From contig NZ_JADOVI010000004.1 of assembly GCF_015752155.1 (NCBI RefSeq), positions 1 to 64,000 on the forward strand: DNA of 64,000 nucleotides. The letters run 5' to 3'. Shown here one piece after another: positions 230-11,024 of the stretch (the first letter of the stretch is position 1; every line of letters starts with the position of its first letter). The stretch comes from Cryobacterium sp. MP_M3 (GTDB lineage Bacteria > Actinomycetota > Actinomycetes > Actinomycetales > Microbacteriaceae). The notes under the pieces were generated by a model that ran no database searches, was not told where the DNA came from, and saw only the letters and a program-made list of their open reading frames with translations. A program made the translations under genes and the position numbers.

Positions 230-1573
230 GTGATCGTGGTGCTTCACGTCAACCTGCTGATTGGTGACACCTCCGCACTGGAGCGTCTGCTCGTTGGTGA
301 CGAGGCAAGCATCGGGAGCGCCAGCCGCACTATCTTCGTGATCGGGCGAATCGATGAGGTCGGAGTGGATCCCCATTTCGCTGCACGCGACTTCCTCGTG
401 CGCCGCCATCGGAAGATCGAGGAACTGCTCACGATCTTCCGGTCAAAGAGCATCGTCGTCAGGCCACAGCAGGTACTCGCCGTCGCCGCTGATCCGTACG
501 GTCTGGTCGGCGACCGTTCACCCGTAACGCAGGCAGACTACGCACCCGCCGCGCGGGTCTGGGATGGCGTGGCCGCGCTGTGTGAACCACTGCTCTCACT
601 TGATGGCGAGCGCCTGCTCAGTCTTGCCGTGGAGGCGGCGCTGGATCGTGCGCGCTCGGCACTCCGACTTGCGAAGCACCGTGTGGAGTCTGAGATCGAT
701 GACCTAGATGCGGCCCAGTCCGCACGCGCGCGGCTGGAGCGGCTCGTCGAGATGTCGCTGGCCGAACTGAGGCTGCTGACGCGCTCGATCAAGGGGCGGA
801 CTCGTCGCGTTGCAGAAGACCACGCCAGCGAAGTTTTGGCCGAAGCGCTCGGAGCCGGTCCAGACGCGGTCGATGTCATGGCGAAACGGCTGGATACCTG
901 GTGGGAGGATCCGCGGCTTGGAAGCGCGATGGACTCGCTGTCGGTAGAGATTGAGCGCGAACTCGACGAGTGGTCACGCCGTCACGCATCCGAGTTTGAC
1001 CGCGAGCTGAAGCGTTTCGAGTTTGCGGCGGAAACCAAGAGGAGCGGGAAGGACCAAGGCGGGGGGCTGGCTGGAGGCGTTCACGCGGCGGCCGTCGGCG
1101 TCAAACACGTCGGGGTCGTCGTAAAGGCGATCGGCAACCGCGACGCCGTGTACGCGATCGGAAAGGCATTGGGTGCGAAGTTCAAGCCCTGGGGAGCAGT
1201 GAAACTGGGAGCGAAGGTCGGCAAGGCGGGCGCCATCTTGGGGGTCGTGTCCGTGGGCTTTGACATCATGGACTGGGCGATGGACGCCAAGAAGGAGGCG
1301 CGGCGCGAGCTGGCCCGCCAGACAGCCGCAGAGCATATCCGGGCCACGACGGACGATGTTGTGGCAGGCCTGCTTGACCAAGAGGAAGGCCCCATGAACT
1401 ACGTCCGGGGGGTCGATGCGCTATTCGCCGGTCACCTCCAACAGCTCGTCGACCAAGGAATGCGCCAACAACAATCGATGGTCGACGCCGCCCACCGTCG
1501 GGACGGCATGATGGAGTTGCACGCGGCTGGCGAGAGCTTGGCCGAGGTACCTACGGAAAGAGCTGCAAGATGA
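230..1573 (+). CDS. Dynamin-like GTPase, probably 5'-truncated
   Basis: The protein (447 residues from the GTG at 230) has a G4-like motif near its start (FVIGRIDEVG, about residues 36-45). A long helical region, probably coiled-coil, follows, with a hydrophobic segment near residues 325-350. Conserved GTPase sequence, including a G3 motif DVPG, lies upstream in the same frame between 83 and 229, so the true product was longer. The P-loop is absent. It overlaps the next GTPase gene by 4 nt (ATGA), as expected for a co-translated pair. Large bacterial GTPases in tandem occur in dynamin-like and LeoA-type systems and act on membranes. It may be a catalytically dead partner or a decaying gene. 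GTPase ancestry is fairly firm; function is unknown. Confidence 0.6.
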   Translation: MIVVLHVNLLIGDTSALERLLVGDEASIGSASRTIFVIGRIDEVGVDPHFAARDFLVRRHRKIEELLTIFRSKSIVVRPQQVLAVAADPYGLVGDRSPVTQADYAPAARVWDGVAALCEPLLSLDGERLLSLAVEAALDRARSALRLAKHRVESEIDDLDAAQSARARLERLVEMSLAELRLLTRSIKGRTRRVAEDHASEVLAEALGAGPDAVDVMAKRLDTWWEDPRLGSAMDSLSVEIERELDEWSRRHASEFDRELKRFEFAAETKRSGKDQGGGLAGGVHAAAVGVKHVGVVVKAIGNRDAVYAIGKALGAKFKPWGAVKLGAKVGKAGAILGVVSVGFDIMDWAMDAKKEARRELARQTAAEHIRATTDDVVAGLLDQEEGPMNYVRGVDALFAGHLQQLVDQGMRQQQSMVDAAHRRDGMMELHAAGESLAEVPTERAAR

Positions 1574-3180
1574 CAGTGCACTCAGCGACAGAACTCCAGT
1601 CGTGGATCAGCGACGTGTCTGGAGAGGACGACACCGCGAAGTTGAGCGTCGAGTGGGCAGAGTTTGCCGGACGGCGGCAGCCCGTCCTCACTCTGTTCGG
1701 TGCGTTCGATACGGGCAAGAGTTCAATCCTCCGACGTCTCTTGGTCGAGGCGGGCCAGCCGCTGCCCGAGTGGCTAACCATCAGCGCTCGGCACGAGACC
1801 TTCGCAGAGAACCTGATCGAGGTCGACGGCTGCCTGGTCCGCGACACTCCGGGCCTCTCCCCGGAGGGGCAGGATGCGCGGTCGCTGAGCAACTCCGAGG
1901 TAGCGCGCTCAACGCTCGGCCTGACCGACGTGCTTCTGGTCACGTTGAATCCGCAATTGTCGACGGGCGAACGTCCCGAGCTACTCGAAGTGCTCTCAAT
2001 GGGGTGGCCCCCCGGGTGCGTATGGTTCCTCATCTCGCGGGCGGACGAGGGTGGCGTGGACCCTACGCTCAACCTGGACGGGTTCAAGGAGTGGGCCGCG
2101 CGTAAGCGCGATGAATTACGCGAGTCGCTGAGCTTGACCGATGCACACCGCATCTTCGTCATCGTTCCTGACTTCGCTGGACTGGGTGCCTTCGAGTCCG
2201 CCCCAGAGTCGAGCGTCTGGGACTCATCGCGGTCGTGGGATGGGATGGACGAGCTCCATTCGGCGCTCGTCGAGTTGTCCGGGGAAGACCACAAGGATGC
2301 TCGGTGCGCTGCGGAGCTGCGATTCTGGACGCGAGCCGCGTCTGTTCGTCTCGCGAGCGCTACTGCCACGGTTGACGACCTGAAGGTGTCCGCCGATGTC
2401 GCCAACGCTTCACTTCAGCGGAGGAGTCTCTTCCTGAAGCAGGTCGACGCGCTCGTCGGGGCCGCCGAGGCTTCGCTCAACGGTTCGATCGAGGATGCAA
2501 TCCGACGCGCCGTCAACAACCCACAGGTGGACGCCGAGTCGATTCAAAACACTGTCGATCCCGTGCTTGAGGAGTGGTGGCAGAAACAGCAGGTCGGTCT
2601 TGCGCGCATCCGTCAGGACGCAATTCAGGCGCTCGACCAACAGCGCGAGGGCCAGGGCTGGGCGAAGTTCGAGTCCGTCTATCGGCGGTTCACTCAACCT
2701 GCGGAGGAAGATGCAACGAGGGCGCCAAGCCTCGTTCCGCGGCTCGAAGAGCTGGGCCAGAAAGCCATCGGCGCACTTCAAGGCGCGGACCGTCTGTGGC
2801 AGGCACACCTGGCGGCCAAGCAACCTGGAAAGGTCGCCGAAATCACGAAGTCCGCTGGCAAGCTGGGCCTCGCCGGTGGCATCGCCTCCGCCGCACTGCC
2901 CGTCGTCGCCGAACTTGCCTCGATGATCGAGGACAAAGTCCAGATTGACCGCGACAAGGTGCGCCAGCGGGAACAACGGGAGCAACTACACGCAGCGGTC
3001 GCCGAAATCGTGAAAGTTGCGGCCGATGAGGCAATGCGGGCTATGGAACCCAGCATTGAGGCCCTCAGGCGAGAGATCACGGCGCAGACAGTTGAAGAAG
3101 CTGAGGTTAGAAGTCTCGAAGCGGCCGTGCACGAGGCCAGCGATCTCGTGATCCGAGGCAAAGCGCTTCTATCTCACTGA
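1570..3180 (+). CDS. Dynamin-like GTPase, second of a tandem pair
   Basis: This 536-residue protein has a complete GTPase front end: P-loop GAFDTGKSS at residues 44-52, G3 DTPG at 92-95 and a G4-like SRAD at about 156-159. The rest is long and helical, with probable coiled coil, and carries a hydrophobic stretch at about 430-455 (GLAGGIASAALPVVAEL) that could insert into a membrane. This layout fits dynamin-like or LeoA-like proteins. The start overlaps the stop of the preceding GTPase gene, so the two are probably translationally coupled. The pair sits just upstream of the conjugation genes. It could be cargo, for example membrane repair or phage defence, or a transfer accessory. The GTPase call is strong; the role is inference. 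Confidence 0.7.
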   Translation: MTVHSATELQSWISDVSGEDDTAKLSVEWAEFAGRRQPVLTLFGAFDTGKSSILRRLLVEAGQPLPEWLTISARHETFAENLIEVDGCLVRDTPGLSPEGQDARSLSNSEVARSTLGLTDVLLVTLNPQLSTGERPELLEVLSMGWPPGCVWFLISRADEGGVDPTLNLDGFKEWAARKRDELRESLSLTDAHRIFVIVPDFAGLGAFESAPESSVWDSSRSWDGMDELHSALVELSGEDHKDARCAAELRFWTRAASVRLASATATVDDLKVSADVANASLQRRSLFLKQVDALVGAAEASLNGSIEDAIRRAVNNPQVDAESIQNTVDPVLEEWWQKQQVGLARIRQDAIQALDQQREGQGWAKFESVYRRFTQPAEEDATRAPSLVPRLEELGQKAIGALQGADRLWQAHLAAKQPGKVAEITKSAGKLGLAGGIASAALPVVAELASMIEDKVQIDRDKVRQREQREQLHAAVAEIVKVAADEAMRAMEPSIEALRREITAQTVEEAEVRSLEAAVHEASDLVIRGKALLSH

Positions 3181-4965: not shown

Positions 4966-6432
4966 ATGGCGACGCATCACGACCCGACGAACGGCCAGCA
5001 GCTCTCATCGATGCAGTTCTCCCGGCTGCCTCGGCGCGGTATCCTGCTCGGGCTGTCGGTCTCGCAGCTCCTCGTTTTCGGCATCGGGATCGTCACGTTT
5101 GTGATCGCGATCTACTCGGGCGGCGCAATGGTTGTCGTCGGGTCGTCGCCAATCTGGCTAACCTGCCTCCTGCTCGCCTCCGTCTTGGTGAGGGGCCGCA
5201 AGCTCGTCGACTGGCTGCCGATCGTCACCCGCTGGACGTGGCGCAGCACGGCAGGCCAGCTGATCTTCCGGCATCGGGTCATCAAACCGCGGCCCGTGGG
5301 CACGCTCTCGTTGCCGGGTGACGCGGCGGCACTCCGTGAGTGGGTCGATCCCGAGACCGGCGCAGCGATGGTGCACGATCCGCACGCGCAGACACTCACC
5401 GCCGTCCTCGGCGTCACACACCCCGCCTTCGTGCTGCTCGACCCCGGCGAGCAGCAACGGCGAGTCAGCGGCTGGGGACGAGTGCTCGCCACCGCATGCC
5501 ACTCGGGCAGGATCGCCCGCCTCCAAGTATCGGAGCGAACCCTTCCCGACTCCGGCAGCGGACTCGCCGAGTGGTGGGCGACGCACGGCAAAGACGACGA
5601 CTCCTGGCCCGCGACGACGTACCGCGAACTGATCGAACGCGCGGGGCCGACCAGCGAGCGTCACGCGACGACAATCTCGCTCGCGCTCGACATGCACGCT
5701 GCGGCGCGGCAGATCCGCTCCTCGGGCGGCGGTCTCCGCGGGGCTGCCTCGGTGCTGCGGCAGGAGATGACCACGCTCGTCACCGCGCTGCGCGCCGCCG
5801 ACCTCACGACGACCGGCTGGCTCTCACCGGGTGAGGTCGCGGTCATCCTCCGCTCGGCCTACGATCCGGCTGCCGCGCCCGCCCTCGAACGACACTCCGA
5901 GATCAGCCGGTCGCTCGCCACCGCGGGGCCGGTCGCGTTGACCGAAAGCTGGGACAAGATGCGGACAGACTCGGCGCACCACACGGTGCTCTGGATCTCA
6001 GAGTGGCCGCGCTCGCAGGTCTACCCAGGGTTCCTCGCCCCCATGCTGCTGACCTCGGGAGTCAAGCGCACGTTCTCGCTGATCTGCACACCGGTGCGCG
6101 CCGACCTGGCGGTGCGCGACATCCGCAAGAAGAAGGTTGGGCTCCTCTCGGACGCGGCGCAGCGCGCGAAGATCGGGCAGATCGAAGACGCTGCCCGCAC
6201 CGCCGAGTACCAGGACGTGCTCCAGCAGGAGTCCGACCTCACCGCCGGCCACGGTGTACTCCGCTACACCGGGCTCATCGCCGTCTCGGCTCCGACCGTC
6301 GACGAACTGGATGCCGCCGTCGCCGCGATCGAACAGGCCGCCGTACAGGCGTCGTGCGAGACGCGGCGGCTGGTCGGGCAACAAGCCCAAGCGTTCGCCG
6401 CGGCCGCTCTGCCACTCTGCCGGGACGTGTGA
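4966..6432 (+). CDS. SCO6880-family conjugation protein
   Basis: A 488-residue protein with two hydrophobic helices near the N-terminus (about 25-75) and a long soluble part, with no Walker motifs. The sequence, including the region around LRYTGLIAVSAPTVDELDAAV, fits the SCO6880 family of actinobacterial conjugative elements. As I understand the family, it combines a PrgI/VirB3-like membrane part with the N-terminal part of VirB4, while the ATPase part is a separate gene. That matches this locus, where a short VirB4-like ATPase lies at 11477-12970. The two are separated here by a 4.6-kb cargo insertion, which is unusual. Confidence 0.75.
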   Translation: MATHHDPTNGQQLSSMQFSRLPRRGILLGLSVSQLLVFGIGIVTFVIAIYSGGAMVVVGSSPIWLTCLLLASVLVRGRKLVDWLPIVTRWTWRSTAGQLIFRHRVIKPRPVGTLSLPGDAAALREWVDPETGAAMVHDPHAQTLTAVLGVTHPAFVLLDPGEQQRRVSGWGRVLATACHSGRIARLQVSERTLPDSGSGLAEWWATHGKDDDSWPATTYRELIERAGPTSERHATTISLALDMHAAARQIRSSGGGLRGAASVLRQEMTTLVTALRAADLTTTGWLSPGEVAVILRSAYDPAAAPALERHSEISRSLATAGPVALTESWDKMRTDSAHHTVLWISEWPRSQVYPGFLAPMLLTSGVKRTFSLICTPVRADLAVRDIRKKKVGLLSDAAQRAKIGQIEDAARTAEYQDVLQQESDLTAGHGVLRYTGLIAVSAPTVDELDAAVAAIEQAAVQASCETRRLVGQQAQAFAAAALPLCRDV

Positions 6433-6533
6433 CCGATCCGCGGGAGCACATGAATGGCCGTGACCTCAGGACTGGGCTGGGGCCATGCTCTCCAGCCGTC
6501 CCGCTGCCCTCTCCGAAAGCTTCGCCAAGTCCG

Positions 6534-6932
6534 TCAACACCTCTCGGCCTTCGCGTGGGCGTCAGCTTGCAGAGTGGCGTAGTCGGCGCGGCGGTCCTTG
6601 TGGTCCGCGAGTTCCAGCCGATAACGCTCCATCCGGTTGCGATGCTCCGAAGGATCGTCCGCCTCGCAGTAGTCATCTTGGGCCCGTTCGAGATCGCGCT
6701 GAACCTTGGTGATCTGCGTGTCCATTCCAGCCAAGATTGGGGCGCTGTCACTGAGATCCGGGCCCTCCGGCACCTCCAACCATTGGCGAGCCCGCGACAA
6801 TCCAAGCCAGGATCGCCTCGTGTTGCCCTTGCTGGCCGCTACGAAGACGTTCCTTTGTACTCGCAGGCGAGTCCTTGGCCTGCCCTGGATACAACTCGAC
6901 CCCCAGTGGAATCCAGGGGTCGAATCGTGCAA
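6534..6932 (-). CDS. Small coiled-coil protein, possibly a gene remnant
   Basis: The minus frame has GC-rich third positions and encodes a charged helical C-terminal half that starts at an internal Met (6725) and contains TKVQRDLERAQDDY, likely coiled coil. The part upstream of that Met also looks coding (RSWLGLSRARQWLEVPEG), so this may be the tail of a longer gene cut by insertion of the neighbouring cassette. The short version would be 6534-6725. No ribosome binding site decides the start, and I recognise no family. Confidence 0.3.
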   Translation of the reverse strand: MHDSTPGFHWGSSCIQGRPRTRLRVQRNVFVAASKGNTRRSWLGLSRARQWLEVPEGPDLSDSAPILAGMDTQITKVQRDLERAQDDYCEADDPSEHRNRMERYRLELADHKDRRADYATLQADAHAKAERC

Positions 6933-7016
6933 TCAGAGATAGAAATGGAATAGAGAGTCCGTCACCAAGAAAATCCAAACACGGGGTTTGCCTACCGGAC
7001 AAGTACCAGCAAGGAG

Positions 7017-8420
7017 CTAGCTACGCTCACGACCGGTCAGCAAATCAATATCCTCACGTGCGAGCGGCGACTGGAATGCCAATAGCCGTGTCGCTTCCAC
7101 AAAGGAAGCTACCGGCGCGTTCGGTGCTGATGCGGTCATAGCCCCGAAATCGACAACGATCGCGACATTCTCCTCGTCGTACTCTCTGCGGACTGTTGCG
7201 GATGGAACATGAAAATCATCCTGGATCGTATTGCGAATACTGAGGACATCTTCGAAGACGTTTGCCGACTTTTCCCCTTCAACGCGTACGGACCGAGAGA
7301 GGCCTTGCAGCTGAACTGCCCCGACAATGAGTGAATCGAAAAGTGGGAAGAGATTGTCCCACCTAGCTGCCCCGCGGGCATCTCGACCCTTCAAGCGACG
7401 TTGATCCGCAGTCAGGAACATCGTCCAGGGCCCTACATCTGCGGCGAGCAGGCGAGCTTTGATTCGCCAACCCGACGAAGGAGCCACACCTTCAATCTCC
7501 TCCGCAAACGTTAATTGAGCCCGTGAAGCGCCCCACCTTTCCACGTTCGCTGAAACAAGAGGAGTGAGGTCTAACCCAGCAAGATCGTCGGCGATGGATT
7601 CGAGCCTGCCCAGATCCATTAATCCGCCGACCGCTGCCCAATACGATCGATTCTTCGTAACTCGCTCGTCCGCAAGCAAGTAGGGCAGCAGTACGCGAAG
7701 TTCACTATCGGACAGTCCCGCGTCTTCGTCAAGGGCCTCGATATCGCCGAGGTCAGTTTCAAGGCCAAGCCGGATAAGTCGAATGGCTTCATGAAGGCGC
7801 GAAGCGGCAGGTGCGAGGAACAGCTGGTCAATCTGGGTTTGAAACGCCATCATCGCTTCAGCTGAATCGGTCGAGTCATTGCCGGACTCAACGAGCGCAC
7901 GAGAGTCCTCTTCTGCTAGAACCCCGCGGCCCCCTCTCACGATGCTGCCACGCACCAGATCAAGGATGGGCGCCTTTCGCACTGTTGAAGTGCTTGGTAC
8001 TTCGACAGCGACTCTGGTCAAGTCGGCAACGGCCGACAACTCGGTTACGAAAGCACGGGGTGCTTCCTTGAATTGATCCCGCACCTCCTCGATGAGTTCC
8101 TTTTCGTCCTCAGTACGTAGGCCAAGCATGACGGGTTCCAGCCCGGCCAGCGCTTCGGCTTGATCCCCCATGGCCATCGATCCAAGCGAGTTACGCAGGT
8201 AGATACGCCGCTCACGCTTCTTGCCCGAATCTCGCCACTGGATCACCATGTCTGGCACATATGAATGATTGAAGTAGTCCGTGAACACAATGTTTGCGTC
8301 CGGATCAAGCATCGTCAGCTCAGCGGCAACGGCAGACTTCACTCCCTGGACTACGTCGCCCTCGCGGCTGGCACTCATTGCTTCGCGGACGGCTGCGACG
8401 CTGTCAAAGATTTCGCTCAT
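7017..8420 (-). CDS. Uncharacterised protein, partner of the nuclease-like gene
   Basis: A 467-residue protein I do not recognise. Its N-terminus resembles the core of a PD-(D/E)XK nuclease: E34, then VPDMVIQW with P56-D57, then a strand RRIYLR (about 71-76). Where an active enzyme has E-x-K, this one has Y-x-R, so it may be an inactive nuclease fold. The remainder is mixed helix and strand with no membrane segment. Its start overlaps the stop of the 8417-9001 gene by 4 nt (ATGA), so the pair is a translationally coupled two-gene unit. Base composition is lower in GC than the flanking T4SS genes, consistent with recent acquisition. A defence or restriction role is plausible but only inferred. 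Confidence 0.55.
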   Translation of the reverse strand: MSEIFDSVAAVREAMSASREGDVVQGVKSAVAAELTMLDPDANIVFTDYFNHSYVPDMVIQWRDSGKKRERRIYLRNSLGSMAMGDQAEALAGLEPVMLGLRTEDEKELIEEVRDQFKEAPRAFVTELSAVADLTRVAVEVPSTSTVRKAPILDLVRGSIVRGGRGVLAEEDSRALVESGNDSTDSAEAMMAFQTQIDQLFLAPAASRLHEAIRLIRLGLETDLGDIEALDEDAGLSDSELRVLLPYLLADERVTKNRSYWAAVGGLMDLGRLESIADDLAGLDLTPLVSANVERWGASRAQLTFAEEIEGVAPSSGWRIKARLLAADVGPWTMFLTADQRRLKGRDARGAARWDNLFPLFDSLIVGAVQLQGLSRSVRVEGEKSANVFEDVLSIRNTIQDDFHVPSATVRREYDEENVAIVVDFGAMTASAPNAPVASFVEATRLLAFQSPLAREDIDLLTGRERS

Positions 8421-9001
8421 TCTGTTCCCCTTCTTCCGAGGACGCTGTGCACTTTGTCCAGTTCTACTTGGGTGAGATTAAGTTGGTGCTGCCGAGCGTT
8501 TACCACCAGCACCCAGAGACGGCCCGCAACTCGGGTCAGGAGGTCTTCGTCTATATCCAACCCGTTTAGTACCTCAGGATGCTTCTCGGTAACCGCAGTC
8601 TTGAGGCGTTCACGAGTGGCGAGTTCAACCCATTTTGTTTGCTCAAACGGATGGGTCGTCACCCACATGAAATTCGCTTTGGGATCTCCGATCCCCTTAG
8701 CTTCCATCTTGGCACTGACACTGTATGCATTAGCGAGGAACTCCCAGAACTCGTCAGGCTGCTTCCCGCCCGGCCCCCCGTAGTCCTTCACTTCGACATA
8801 CAGCGGTTCCTTCGTTGAGAGGATCTTGCCGAAGAGATCATAGGTCTTTATCTCACCGTCAAGGCGTTCGAGAGTGCATAAAGCGGTGTAGTAGTAGGAG
8901 TCAAAACCAAGCTCAATATGCGTGGTGCTTTCGAGCCAGCGCTTGGAATCGAAAACGCCTTTACGACCCTTCTCATGCGCCCCTTCGCGAAGTGATGCCA
9001 A
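8417..9001 (-). CDS. PD-(D/E)XK-like nuclease protein of a two-gene cassette
   Basis: A 194-residue protein from a TTG start at 9001, with AGGAG eight to nine bases upstream on the minus strand; no ATG fits better. It shows a plausible PD-(D/E)XK active site: D55 in YDLFGKI and E70-V-K72 in LYVEVKDYGG, with E24 ahead of them. Length and motif spacing fit a small restriction-like endonuclease. The first residues are very basic. It is co-translated with the 467-residue partner downstream and inserted between conjugation genes, a typical place for cargo defence systems. No methyltransferase accompanies it. The family assignment is by motif only. Confidence 0.55.
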   Translation of the reverse strand: MASLREGAHEKGRKGVFDSKRWLESTTHIELGFDSYYYTALCTLERLDGEIKTYDLFGKILSTKEPLYVEVKDYGGPGGKQPDEFWEFLANAYSVSAKMEAKGIGDPKANFMWVTTHPFEQTKWVELATRERLKTAVTEKHPEVLNGLDIDEDLLTRVAGRLWVLVVNARQHQLNLTQVELDKVHSVLGRRGTE

Positions 9002-9175
9002 TTATCTGCTCCTAGTCAGGTCGTTATTGGAACATTAGCTGCTCTCAGTATTCTCGTGTTTCATTGTCCTGCCCGTTTCCTGGGGGCACGCCGGTCCCCC
9101 GAGGAAACTGACCAACGGTCATCCGAACGAAGCGAACCCCTCGTCGTAAATTGTCCGACTCGGTAGCATCGGGGG

Positions 9176-9391
9176 ATGCCCACAGGACCCGACCACGCCC
9201 GCGCCGTCAACAGCATCGTGAATGGCGAACTCACGCAGGAGGCATTTCCCTGCCGTTGCATGATCGGGGAGGACCACATCGAAGGTCCGACATCGCTGAA
9301 CTATGAGGAAGAGCCTGAAGACCACTCGTTCGCGGGAGCCGAGGAAATTTGGGATTCGAGCGGCAGGGACGAGGACTACGACTTCCGCTAG
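9176..9391 (+). CDS. Small acidic protein of unknown function
   Basis: A 71-residue ORF with a run of G just ahead of its ATG and a strongly acidic C-terminal half (YEEEPEDH). It carries two nearby cysteines (CRC). It starts 174 nt upstream of, and divergently from, the nuclease-like cassette. It could be an antirestriction-like or regulatory small protein, but no family is recognised. Codon usage is only moderately GC-rich, so it may be spurious. Confidence 0.35.
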   Translation: MPTGPDHARAVNSIVNGELTQEAFPCRCMIGEDHIEGPTSLNYEEEPEDHSFAGAEEIWDSSGRDEDYDFR

Positions 9392-9689
9392 TTGAAAGTG
9401 ACTGAGGCGGGCCGCCGCGCGAGAGTCAAAGTGCTAACGCGCCTACTGCGTCGAGAACTTTCATGGTCGCCAGCACAGCGTTGCCCCAGTACTGCTTGCT
9501 GCCTGCCACCTCGCGGACCGCAACTGCCGACCATGAACGAAGACTGGCACGACGATGCTGTGTGCAGTAACAACGGCAACGAGTCGCACCGCCCCTACCT
9601 GCGTGAGTGAGACGACTTCGTGACCAAGGCCGAACTCAAGGAGTCGGCGCGCGATTACGCGGCGGAACTCAACGCCGGTTGACACGCCT
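9392..9689 (+). other. Gene remnants or tiny ORFs between cargo genes
   Basis: One plus frame reads a short peptide at 9533-9610 (starting MNEDWHDDAVC) and then, after a TGA, a second coding-like stretch at 9620-9682 (VTKAELKESARDYAAELNAG). Both have GC-rich third positions. The in-frame stops suggest a decayed gene rather than an intact one. I see no RNA or repeat structure here. Confidence 0.3.
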
Positions 9690-9851
9690 ATGACCAACCA
9701 AGCGGCGAACCCGACGCCGTGGGCGCACCTCGACCTCGATCGTCGCTGCGGGATTCCTACGACGACTGCCGACGTCGAGCGAGGTGGGACCGAGGCTGCG
9801 CTCGCGGCGAGCATCGACGAAGAACTTGCCGAATCGGCTTACGCCGAGTAA
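9690..9851 (+). CDS. Tiny ORF of unknown function
   Basis: A 53-residue ORF from ATG 9690 to TAA 9851. It has a strong GC bias at third codon positions and an acidic alanine-rich end (AASIDEELAES). No clear ribosome binding site precedes it. It sits just before the converging caspase-like gene. It may be an intact small ICE protein or the end of the decayed gene in the preceding stretch. Confidence 0.35.
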   Translation: MTNQAANPTPWAHLDLDRRCGIPTTTADVERGGTEAALAASIDEELAESAYAE

Positions 9852-9860
9852 GCGCCGCTG

Positions 9861-10910
9861 CTACTCCGCTGGGCGAACAAGCAACGTAGCAGCGGGGTCG
9901 ACACCCTCAGACCACGCGAGGGTGGGCAGATCGGCTCCGTTGAGCCCGGCGAGCTGTAGCGCCGCCTGGCCGGATAGATGCGCGGAGTGGATCGACTGTC
10001 CGTTGGCGACCGCAGCGTAGAACTGCGCCGCGTAGCTGATCGCATCGCCGTCGTCGATCTCGTCTGCCATGCCGATTGCGAACGGCACAACGTCCTGAAC
10101 GAGCGCGTCGATCTGGCCGGCCGACCTGCACGAGTTGAGCAGCACGAGCAACGGCGGGTCGTCCGTGGCGCGGATCGCGGCGGCGAATGCTCGCGCGGTC
10201 ACGATTACGCCTTCGTGGGGCTCATCGCGCTCGTCCTCGAAGACGATGAGGTCTTCATTGCTGTGCCCGGAGAAGTGCACGACGTGCGGGCGGAACTTCG
10301 TGATGCCGTCCATGAGGTCTGCAGTCGTGGCCGCCGGGCGTACGTCCAGCGTGATTCGGTCGCGATGCAGCGCGGATTCGACGGCGGCACGGATGCGCTT
10401 CTGTTCACGCCCGACGCGGAGGTCTCCCTCGGAGGAGGCGCCCAGGATCAGCACGCGAAGCGTTTCCGGCTTGGGCGGGCGCAGCTCACGGATTGCCTGA
10501 GTCACGGATTGCTCAGTGTGGACAAGGCGCCGCTCGACCGACGCACGCGCTACGGCTGCCTGCTGCTGGTCGCGTTTGCGACGCTGTTCGGCCGTGTTCG
10601 CCTCTGAAAGCTCTGCCTTGACGAGTTTGCCGGCCAACGCAGCCTCCTCTTTCGCGTATCCCGCAGCACGCGATTGCCAGCGACCTGCTTCTTTGCCGGC
10701 CGCGGCTGCCTCGGACTCACGCCTTTCGGCGTCCCGCAGCTTGGTCTGCACCATGCTGGTGCTCTTGGACTTTGACGCCGCAGAGCGGGCAGCCCCTGCT
10801 TCAGCCCGCTTCTTGGATTCCTTGCTGCGGTATTCGCCCGCCTTCTTGTCGGCGTCAACACGCTGCTTACGTTTCCGCTCAAGTTGGCCGCGGTACATAC
10901 TCGCGCTCAT
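9861..10910 (-). CDS. Coiled-coil protein with caspase/CHAT-like peptidase domain
   Basis: The 349-residue protein has a very basic, Ala/Lys/Glu/Arg-rich helical N-terminal half (about 1-145), predicted coiled coil. A compact alpha/beta domain (about 150-349) follows. That domain carries a caspase-type dyad: His216 in VVHFSGHSNED and Cys261 in LLVLLNSCRSAG. Spacing and surrounding hydrophobic strands match CHAT/caspase-like peptidases. In bacteria such domains often act as effectors of defence systems, cutting proteins when a sensor fires; here the coiled coil may be the sensor or scaffold. It is encoded alone, opposite in strand to the T4SS operon, inside the ICE cargo. The fold call is fairly secure; the target is unknown. 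Confidence 0.65.
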   Translation of the reverse strand: MSASMYRGQLERKRKQRVDADKKAGEYRSKESKKRAEAGAARSAASKSKSTSMVQTKLRDAERRESEAAAAGKEAGRWQSRAAGYAKEEAALAGKLVKAELSEANTAEQRRKRDQQQAAVARASVERRLVHTEQSVTQAIRELRPPKPETLRVLILGASSEGDLRVGREQKRIRAAVESALHRDRITLDVRPAATTADLMDGITKFRPHVVHFSGHSNEDLIVFEDERDEPHEGVIVTARAFAAAIRATDDPPLLVLLNSCRSAGQIDALVQDVVPFAIGMADEIDDGDAISYAAQFYAAVANGQSIHSAHLSGQAALQLAGLNGADLPTLAWSEGVDPAATLLVRPAE

Positions 10911-11024
10911 CCGACCCCTTTGCTGTGACTGACCCCGACCTTACCTGGGGCCTCCGACGTAGGGCGTGTGACGCCGGGTAGCGCCGGCGTACCTCCTTGG
11001 TAATTCCGACCATCAGGAGCCCCG

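What the first reader, a model, noticed from the sequence alone, without database searches (positions are those of the whole stretch)
7017..9001. Two-gene cargo cassette with a PD-(D/E)XK-like nuclease and an unknown, perhaps inactive nuclease-fold partner
The small protein has D55 and E70-V-K72; the 467-residue partner has a PD at 56-57 but Y-x-R where E-x-K is expected. The genes overlap by 4 nt, start at TTG, are lower in GC than their surroundings and interrupt a conjugation operon. No methyltransferase is present. I cannot match the pair to any named defence system, so it is the best candidate for an undescribed one.
Basis: partly seen in the sequence, partly recalled or inferred. Interest (0 to 1): 0.75.

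Follow-up and report, generated by a model that had tools for sequence, protein, structure and literature searches.

The report
Two-gene nuclease cassette on mobile DNA
A small gene for a DNA-cutting-type enzyme and a larger partner gene, found side by side on mobile DNA of many actinobacteria and in several cases next to known phage-defence genes, look like an undescribed defence system, but nothing was tested in the laboratory here.

Summary
In detail: two overlapping minus-strand genes, SMALL (194 aa, TTG start) and BIG (467 aa), low in GC, sit in a cargo slot of a conjugative element. A 97% identical element has the slot empty; an 85% one holds only the neighbouring gene. Neither protein matched Pfam, NCBIfam, PHROGs or PADLOC-DB. 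The pair is a real gene family: 28 distinct loci in 12 groups (40% identity), always both genes, SMALL first, 4-nt overlap possible in 24 of 28. SMALL keeps E24, D55, E70-x-K72 in 27 of 27; its best fold matches are Avs/LmuA/Cap4/restriction nucleases (poor model). BIG begins with a restriction-nuclease-like domain (better model); P56-D57 is invariant, but position 74 is always Y/F. BIG's strongest conservation surrounds that site, so 'inactive' is unproven. In at least five groups a restriction-modification system lies nearby; other copies sit beside Shedu, OLD-like or Schlafen-AlbA genes, Tn7-like transposition genes, or in viral contigs. Best reading: an undescribed heteromeric, restriction-like defence nuclease; SMALL cuts, BIG binds DNA and controls it. 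Function is inferred, not shown. 'No methyltransferase' holds for the window (three families searched), not for several relatives.

The parts
8417..9001 (-). SMALL: 194-aa putative PD-(D/E)XK nuclease, TTG start; motif residues E24, D55, E70, K72
   Evidence: fold matches (model pLDDT 62.7)
7017..8420 (-). BIG: 467-aa partner; residues 1-200 restriction-nuclease-like, about 200-295 helical, about 296-467 alpha/beta
   Evidence: (pLDDT 81.0)
8417..8420 (-). 4-nt overlap of the two genes (ATGA); possible in 24 of 28 loci
6433..11024 (.). cargo slot of the conjugative element (empty in L069, CHAT-like gene only in L070)
9861..10910 (-). second cargo gene in the slot: 349-aa protein with a PDC-S66 match and a C-terminal half that I read as caspase-like (CHAT); probably an independent insert

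Best explanation
SMALL and BIG are the two subunits of one restriction-like DNA nuclease that protects actinobacteria, or the mobile element that carries it, against other invading DNA. SMALL is the cutting subunit. BIG carries a second, non-canonical nuclease-fold domain whose conserved site most likely grips DNA, and it positions or licenses SMALL; its C-terminal alpha/beta part probably adds DNA binding. No NTPase was recognised in the pair and no methyltransferase is fixed to it, so self is most likely spared because BIG recognises something found only on the invader (a DNA modification or a DNA structure), or because SMALL is unleashed only after BIG senses infection. Shown: the pair, its conservation, its motifs, its mobile setting and its defence neighbours. 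Inferred: the complex, the DNA cutting, the division of labour and the anti-invader role.
For: Strict pairing: 28 of 28 distinct loci have both genes, same strand, SMALL first, whether found from BIG or from SMALL; 4-nt overlap possible in 24 of 28. Mirror distances r = 0.92 over 120 pairs of 16 representatives, 0 of 2000 permutations as high (shared ancestry not controlled). SMALL E24, D55, E70, K72 invariant in 27 of 27 aligned. SMALL fold matches led by LmuA, Cap4, Avs3, DUF4297 and PaqCI. BIG N-terminal matches: 13 of the 14 best VIA rows are restriction or nicking endonucleases, seven different enzymes (BspD6I nickase Z 7.7, rmsd 4.3, 165 aligned). Neighbours: type I RM (L004, L038, L096), type III RM (L018), type IIG (L021), Shedu SduA 9 nt downstream (L032), OLD-like AAA-TOPRIM (L012, with BLAST homologues in L006, L013, L014), Schlafen AlbA_2 (L008). 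N6_Mtase within 5 kb of the pair in 3 of 14 records tested, 0.19 expected, P 1.4e-4 exact, 1.0e-3 by Poisson; the test was chosen after the neighbours were seen. Carriers: conjugative element, plasmids, Tn7-like surroundings, IMG/VR contigs.
Against: No activity data. No sequence match to any nuclease family (single weak rows only: DpnII E 0.037 and PDDEXK_4 E 0.1, each in 1 of 17 SMALL members). SMALL's model is poor (mean pLDDT 62.7; residues 44-62, with D55, under 50), and non-nucleases such as G6PDH stand among its matches at Z 5.2. No Foldseek match reaches E 0.001 for either protein and all Z are under 8, a range the tool warns about. No complex could be predicted. Some loci show no defence gene among the neighbours looked at (for example L034, L035, L037, beside what I read as an MFS transporter).
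Confidence: 0.58

Rival explanations
1. A sharper version of the best explanation: a modification-dependent (type IV-like) restriction enzyme split over two genes. BIG reads a modified base on the invader's DNA and SMALL cuts nearby; no methyltransferase is then needed.
For: No methyltransferase of three families in the window; AspBHI and MspJI are among BIG's fold matches and MspJI among SMALL's. It would also explain carriage beside RM systems, as a second layer.
Against: Those matches are no better than those to ordinary restriction enzymes; no modified-base-binding domain was identified. Relatives sit beside methylating RM systems, which a modification-dependent enzyme must tolerate.
Confidence: 0.25
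2. Another version: a suicide (abortive-infection) nuclease. BIG holds SMALL silent and releases it on sensing infection; SMALL then degrades all DNA, as proposed for LmuA and Cap4 effectors.
For: SMALL's best fold matches are Cap4, LmuA, Avs3 and DUF4297 proteins; a review describes LmuA effectors, Cap4-type ones included, as acting without discrimination between host and invader (PMC10586767, passages).
Against: Those systems have a dedicated SMC, SAVED, STAND or HerA part (recalled, in part); none was recognised in the pair. BIG's N-terminal part looks like a nuclease, not like any of these.
Confidence: 0.25
3. A heterodimeric type II (type IIT-like) restriction enzyme whose methyltransferase is elsewhere or shared with a neighbouring RM system.
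For: BIG's best VIA match is the large subunit of heterodimeric BspD6I, a large plus small subunit enzyme (PMC6261011, passages; listed as type IIT in PMC4081073, passages); type I, IIG or III systems lie near the pair in five groups.
Against: The neighbouring systems are of three types, and those read in full carry their own restriction part; the window has none. G000 has no PF00145 match and two matches each to PF02384 and PF01555, all on other contigs.
Confidence: 0.12
4. Not defence: a recombination, repair or element-maintenance factor of mobile DNA.
For: Weak matches of BIG's C-terminal part to RdgC (Z 4.5, rmsd 5.3, 145 aligned) and CENP-L/Iml3, and phage RdgC proteins among the BFVD matches of BIG.
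Against: Profile comparison with six RdgC proteins gives nothing; the pair is rare (8 of 394 genomes of the class, own included) and absent from a 97% identical element, so the element does not need it; several copies lie near defence genes.
Confidence: 0.15

Closest known systems
R.BspD6I (Nt.BspD6I + ss.BspD6I), heterodimeric restriction endonuclease
   Same: Large plus small subunit; BIG's N-terminal domain matches the large subunit best (Z 7.0-7.7) and SMALL matches it too (Z 5.5); [quoted passage not shown]
   Different: BIG has the nuclease-like domain first, lacks the acidic residue at the ExK site, and no recognition part like BspD6I's was identified; no methyltransferase is fixed to the pair
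Cap4 / LmuA / DUF4297 / Avs3 nucleases (CBASS, Lamassu, HerA-DUF4297, Avs)
   Same: SMALL's best fold matches; defence setting
   Different: No match to PF14130 or any PADLOC model in 17 SMALL members; no cyclase, SMC, STAND or HerA partner in the pair
MspJI / AspBHI modification-dependent restriction enzymes
   Same: Listed for BIG (Z 4.5-5.0), MspJI for SMALL (Z 4.9); no methyltransferase needed (recalled)
   Different: No modified-base-binding domain identified here
RdgC (and CENP-L/Iml3)
   Same: Weak matches of BIG in two libraries, in the first to its C-terminal part
   Different: No profile-profile match
PADLOC candidate PDC-M70B
   Same: One of 17 BIG members (L037) matches 50 residues at E 0.0017
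   Different: The other 16, the window's included, do not; no PADLOC match for any of 17 SMALL members

Membership tests
PD-(D/E)XK nuclease superfamily (SMALL) | Conserved D ... (D/E)-x-K | tested here: met
   D55, E70-x-K72, plus E24, invariant in 27 of 27 aligned
PD-(D/E)XK nuclease superfamily (SMALL) | Restriction-endonuclease-like fold | tested here: inconclusive
   Best matches are such nucleases, but the model is poor, least certain at the motif
PD-(D/E)XK nuclease superfamily (BIG, N-terminal domain) | Restriction-endonuclease-like fold | tested here: inconclusive
   13 of the 14 best VIA rows are restriction or nicking enzymes, model mostly confident, but Z under 8 and Foldseek E no better than 0.034
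PD-(D/E)XK nuclease superfamily (BIG, N-terminal domain) | Canonical D ... (D/E)-x-K motif | tested here: not met
   D57 invariant, but position 74 is Y or F and 76 is R or K in 27 of 27; an acid at column 86 or 87 in 27 of 27 could be a shifted partner
Cap4_nuclease (PF14130) | Match of SMALL to the family model | tested here: not met
   0 of 17 members at E up to 1; no match anywhere in G000
Lamassu / CBASS / Avs / HerA-DUF4297 | Dedicated SMC, cyclase-SAVED, STAND or HerA partner gene | tested here: not met
   The constant unit is SMALL + BIG; 0 of 17 members of either match PADLOC models of these systems
Type II restriction-modification | Cognate methyltransferase beside the nuclease | tested here: inconclusive
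   None of three families in the window; some relatives lie by RM systems of three types, whose methyltransferases cannot be tied to the pair
Type II restriction-modification | Site-specific cleavage | not testable with these tools
   needs purified proteins
Type IV modification-dependent restriction | Cleavage only of modified DNA | not testable with these tools
   needs phage or plasmid assays
RdgC (BIG, C-terminal part) | Similarity to RdgC | tested here: inconclusive
   hhalign probability 0.0 against six RdgC proteins; weak structural matches

The most novel reading that the evidence does not exclude
A defence system without NTPase and without its own methyltransferase, in which a degenerate but strictly conserved nuclease-fold domain, coupled to a C-terminal DNA-gripping part (perhaps RdgC-like), acts as the sensor of foreign DNA structure or modification and switches on a separate Cap4-like nuclease: self/non-self recognition by a repurposed nuclease fold.
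Probability: 0.25. Interest if true: 0.75.

Novelty: new variant of a known kind. Interest (0 to 1): 0.55.

Why it matters
None of the four family libraries searched here contains the window's two proteins, yet the pair recurs on actinobacterial conjugative elements, plasmids, by Tn7-like transposition genes and in viral contigs, in several cases near RM and other defence systems. If it protects, it would be a compact two-protein system with no recognised NTPase and no fixed methyltransferase, and it would pose a clear question: how is self spared? It also offers a conserved nuclease-fold partner with an altered site, testable by single substitutions.

Tried and rejected
Sequence searches of both proteins against Pfam, PADLOC, NCBIfam and PHROGs: nothing; 17 members of each against Pfam and PADLOC: stray weak rows only. 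NCBIfam and PHROGs were run on the window's proteins alone. Profiles against PDB sequences: two chance rows for SMALL, none for BIG. SMALL and BIG as a duplicated pair: hhalign probability 0.1, no support. RdgC membership of BIG: no profile match. PDC-M70B: one 50-residue match in one of 17 members; the model's own hits, 3 of 197 genomes, were weak; set aside. Cap4 family in the order: 4 of 198 genomes, weak, not used further. Promoter and terminator scan: no more than in shuffled sequence. Repeats round the cassette: short two- or three-copy families and short inverted repeats, not followed.

Rows dropped: L003 (hit antisense to what I read as a peptidase gene). L002 and L018 are one contig by length and score; L020/L038 and L025-L030/L032-L037 are the same places; L094/L096 and L019/L095 are the same records; L001 and L023 are the window's own genes. 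L024/L031 was taken as the same contig as L016 from its length (4,607) and place, not aligned. L022 counts as a locus with both genes, but its BIG is split into two frames and the locus was left out of the 27-row alignments. Family libraries were run on 28 chosen neighbour proteins (10 with PADLOC, 10 and 8 with Pfam; two more proteins are cargo of the conjugative slot), so absence of defence neighbours elsewhere is not shown. The N6_Mtase test covered the records of 14 of the 28 loci. ORFs in the slot were printed for 8 of 20 copies. The genome search covered only the window's phylum and narrower groups, so the actinobacterial limit rests on one genome-contig scan by one peptide pattern.

Literature: ten searches, open-access PubMed Central papers; only part of longer listings was shown; no listed row named this pair, and five accession or locus names of members gave 0 papers. 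Preprint-only or subscription descriptions are not excluded. Passages were read in PMC6261011, PMC10586767, PMC12839542 and PMC4081073; the rest are listings.

Full report
What is there. Two minus-strand genes at 8417-9001 (SMALL, 194 aa, TTG) and 7017-8420 (BIG, 467 aa, ATG) overlap by 4 nt. AGGAG stands before the TTG. Their GC, 55.8%, is far below the window's 67.3%.

Setting. The genes lie between a SCO6880-family gene (E 3e-133) and a virB4-like ATPase gene of a conjugative element. L069, from a genome of the same family, has the SCO6880 protein at 97% identity and the next gene 51 nt on; L070 (85%) has only a homologue (83%) of the neighbouring gene 9861-10910 there; the window has that gene plus the pair, 4,595 nt in all. 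Among the 20 copies fetched (L069-L088), five more hold other genes in or near this slot (L079, L081, L083, L084, L086). One (L085) shows no virB4 in the stretch taken. So the pair is cargo in a slot of changing content.

Family. The four libraries hold neither protein. Homologues were found by tblastn in plasmids, in genomes, and by scans of genome and viral collections; none in the phage records. After removal of duplicates 28 distinct loci remain, the window's included; all 28 have both genes on one strand, SMALL first; a 4-nt overlap is possible in 24 (the others: 8-nt overlap or 1-nt gap in L018, 10-nt gap in L036, 1-nt overlap in L097, and L022 with a broken BIG). All named hosts are Actinomycetota; three loci are IMG/VR contigs. 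The family is rare and patchy: 8 of 394 genomes of the class, own included. Twenty-seven BIG proteins form 12 groups at 40% identity. The window's nearest relatives are in Leifsonia and Microbacterium, 40 and 37% identical.

Motifs. In 27 of 27 SMALL proteins E24, D55, E70 and K72 are invariant. In 27 of 27 BIG proteins D57 is invariant, position 74 is Y or F, and 76 is R or K; an acid stands at column 86 or 87 in every one. Of 12 residues invariant in 16 representative BIG proteins, 8 lie at 28-71; a simple binomial gives P 2e-6, ignoring linkage. The acid on the following helix resembles, from recall, the shifted acid of Cfr10I/Ecl18kI-type enzymes; this was not tested on coordinates, which were not at hand. 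BIG may thus be a DNA-gripping pseudo-nuclease or a nuclease with an altered site.

Structure. BIG: mean pLDDT 81.0, pTM 0.79. Its first 200 residues match restriction enzymes: 13 of the 14 best VIA rows, led by Nt.BspD6I (Z 7.7, rmsd 4.3, 165 aligned), HindIII (6.2, 4.3, 154) and FokI (6.2, 4.4, 146); Foldseek agrees in kind but at E 0.034 or worse. The C-terminal part (296-452) matches RdgC weakly (4.5, 5.3, 145) and CENP-L/Iml3; phage RdgC proteins appear in BFVD, but a profile comparison finds nothing. SMALL: mean pLDDT only 62.7, very low round D55; best VIA matches Avs3 (Z 7.6, rmsd 4.2, 131), LmuA (6.9, 4.8, 146), DUF4297-type proteins and PaqCI, with Cap4 high in the Foldseek list. All Z are under 8, where chance arrangements are common by the tool's own note. 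The case for SMALL rests on motif and fold matches together.

Neighbours. Twenty-eight chosen neighbour proteins were scanned. L038 has hsdM-hsdS-hsdR just upstream on the same strand; L021 a type IIG enzyme just downstream (E 8e-277); L018 a facing type III pair about 1 kb away (mod E 1.6e-76, res only E 5.9e-9); L004 type I hsdS and a shortened hsdM frame about 3 kb away, with an IS481 transposase gene between; L032 a Shedu SduA gene 9 nt downstream (E 5e-18). L096 has a facing hsdR-hsdS-hsdM, identified by an N6_Mtase match and BLAST to the others, and also a DNA_methylase match. L008 has a Schlafen AlbA_2 protein, L036 a ThiF/DUF6791 protein; others scanned were metabolic or unmatched. In Streptomyces (10 related intact copies plus L022) a Mu-type transposase gene lies near the pair in 6 of 11 loci (L005, L012-L015, L017), with TniB and TnsA-like genes in some, and in four loci (L006, L012-L014) an OLD-like AAA-TOPRIM protein. 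Tn7-like transposons are described as carrying defence cargo (PMC8649781, title and start of abstract in the listing). L019 is an IMG/VR contig with a DnaB-type helicase gene, and L009 shares two upstream genes with it; L097 lies beside genes that I read as phage structural genes. N6_Mtase within 5 kb in 3 of 14 records against 0.19 expected gives P 1.4e-4 (1.0e-3 by Poisson), but I chose the test after seeing the neighbours, and one 90-kb plasmid supplies most of the expectation.

Reading. Strict pairing, overlap and matched divergence point to one complex. SMALL's full motif makes it the likely cutter; BIG the DNA-binding or controlling partner. [quoted passage not shown] catalytically inactive restriction-nuclease domains have been proposed as sensors in BREX-related systems (PMC12839542, passages). 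Membership in a named family is not established; the tests are listed in Membership tests. I hold an anti-invader nuclease as most likely (0.58 for the stated mechanism); the modification-dependent and suicide rivals are sharper versions of it, so their odds overlap with it.

Limits. No wet data; two structure jobs, both monomers; one whole-collection genome scan; neighbours scanned selectively; novelty judged against PADLOC-DB of 2023, Pfam, NCBIfam, PHROGs and open-access papers only.

Noticed in passing
window 9861-10910 (-): 349-aa protein matching PADLOC candidate PDC-S66 over residues 1-135 (E 8.5e-10), with a C-terminal half that I read as CHAT/caspase-like (F-S-G-H and N-S-C); an 83% homologue sits alone in the same slot in L070.
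   Followed up: partly
window 230-3180 (+): Two overlapping large genes; the first matches the dynamin-like helical domain (E 3.5e-11), the second only weakly GTPases (E 0.012): perhaps a bacterial dynamin-like pair near the same element.
   Followed up: no
L069-L088, between the SCO6880 and virB4 genes: A cargo slot in a conjugative element: SCO6880-type matches, some distant, in 26 of 100 genomes of the window's family. Empty, CHAT-like gene or other cargo, including 471-aa (L086) and 422-aa (L083) proteins without Pfam matches.
   Followed up: partly
L022 8929-10421: The BIG gene of a [Kitasatospora] papulosa plasmid is split into two frames while SMALL is open throughout.
   Followed up: no
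L032 and L033: The two loci share flanking genes, but L032 has Shedu and further genes between the pair and that flank: a probable defence hotspot.
   Followed up: partly
window 6426-6433 and 10965-10972: CGTGTGAC stands at both ends of the cargo slot; it could be a trace of insertion or chance.
   Followed up: no
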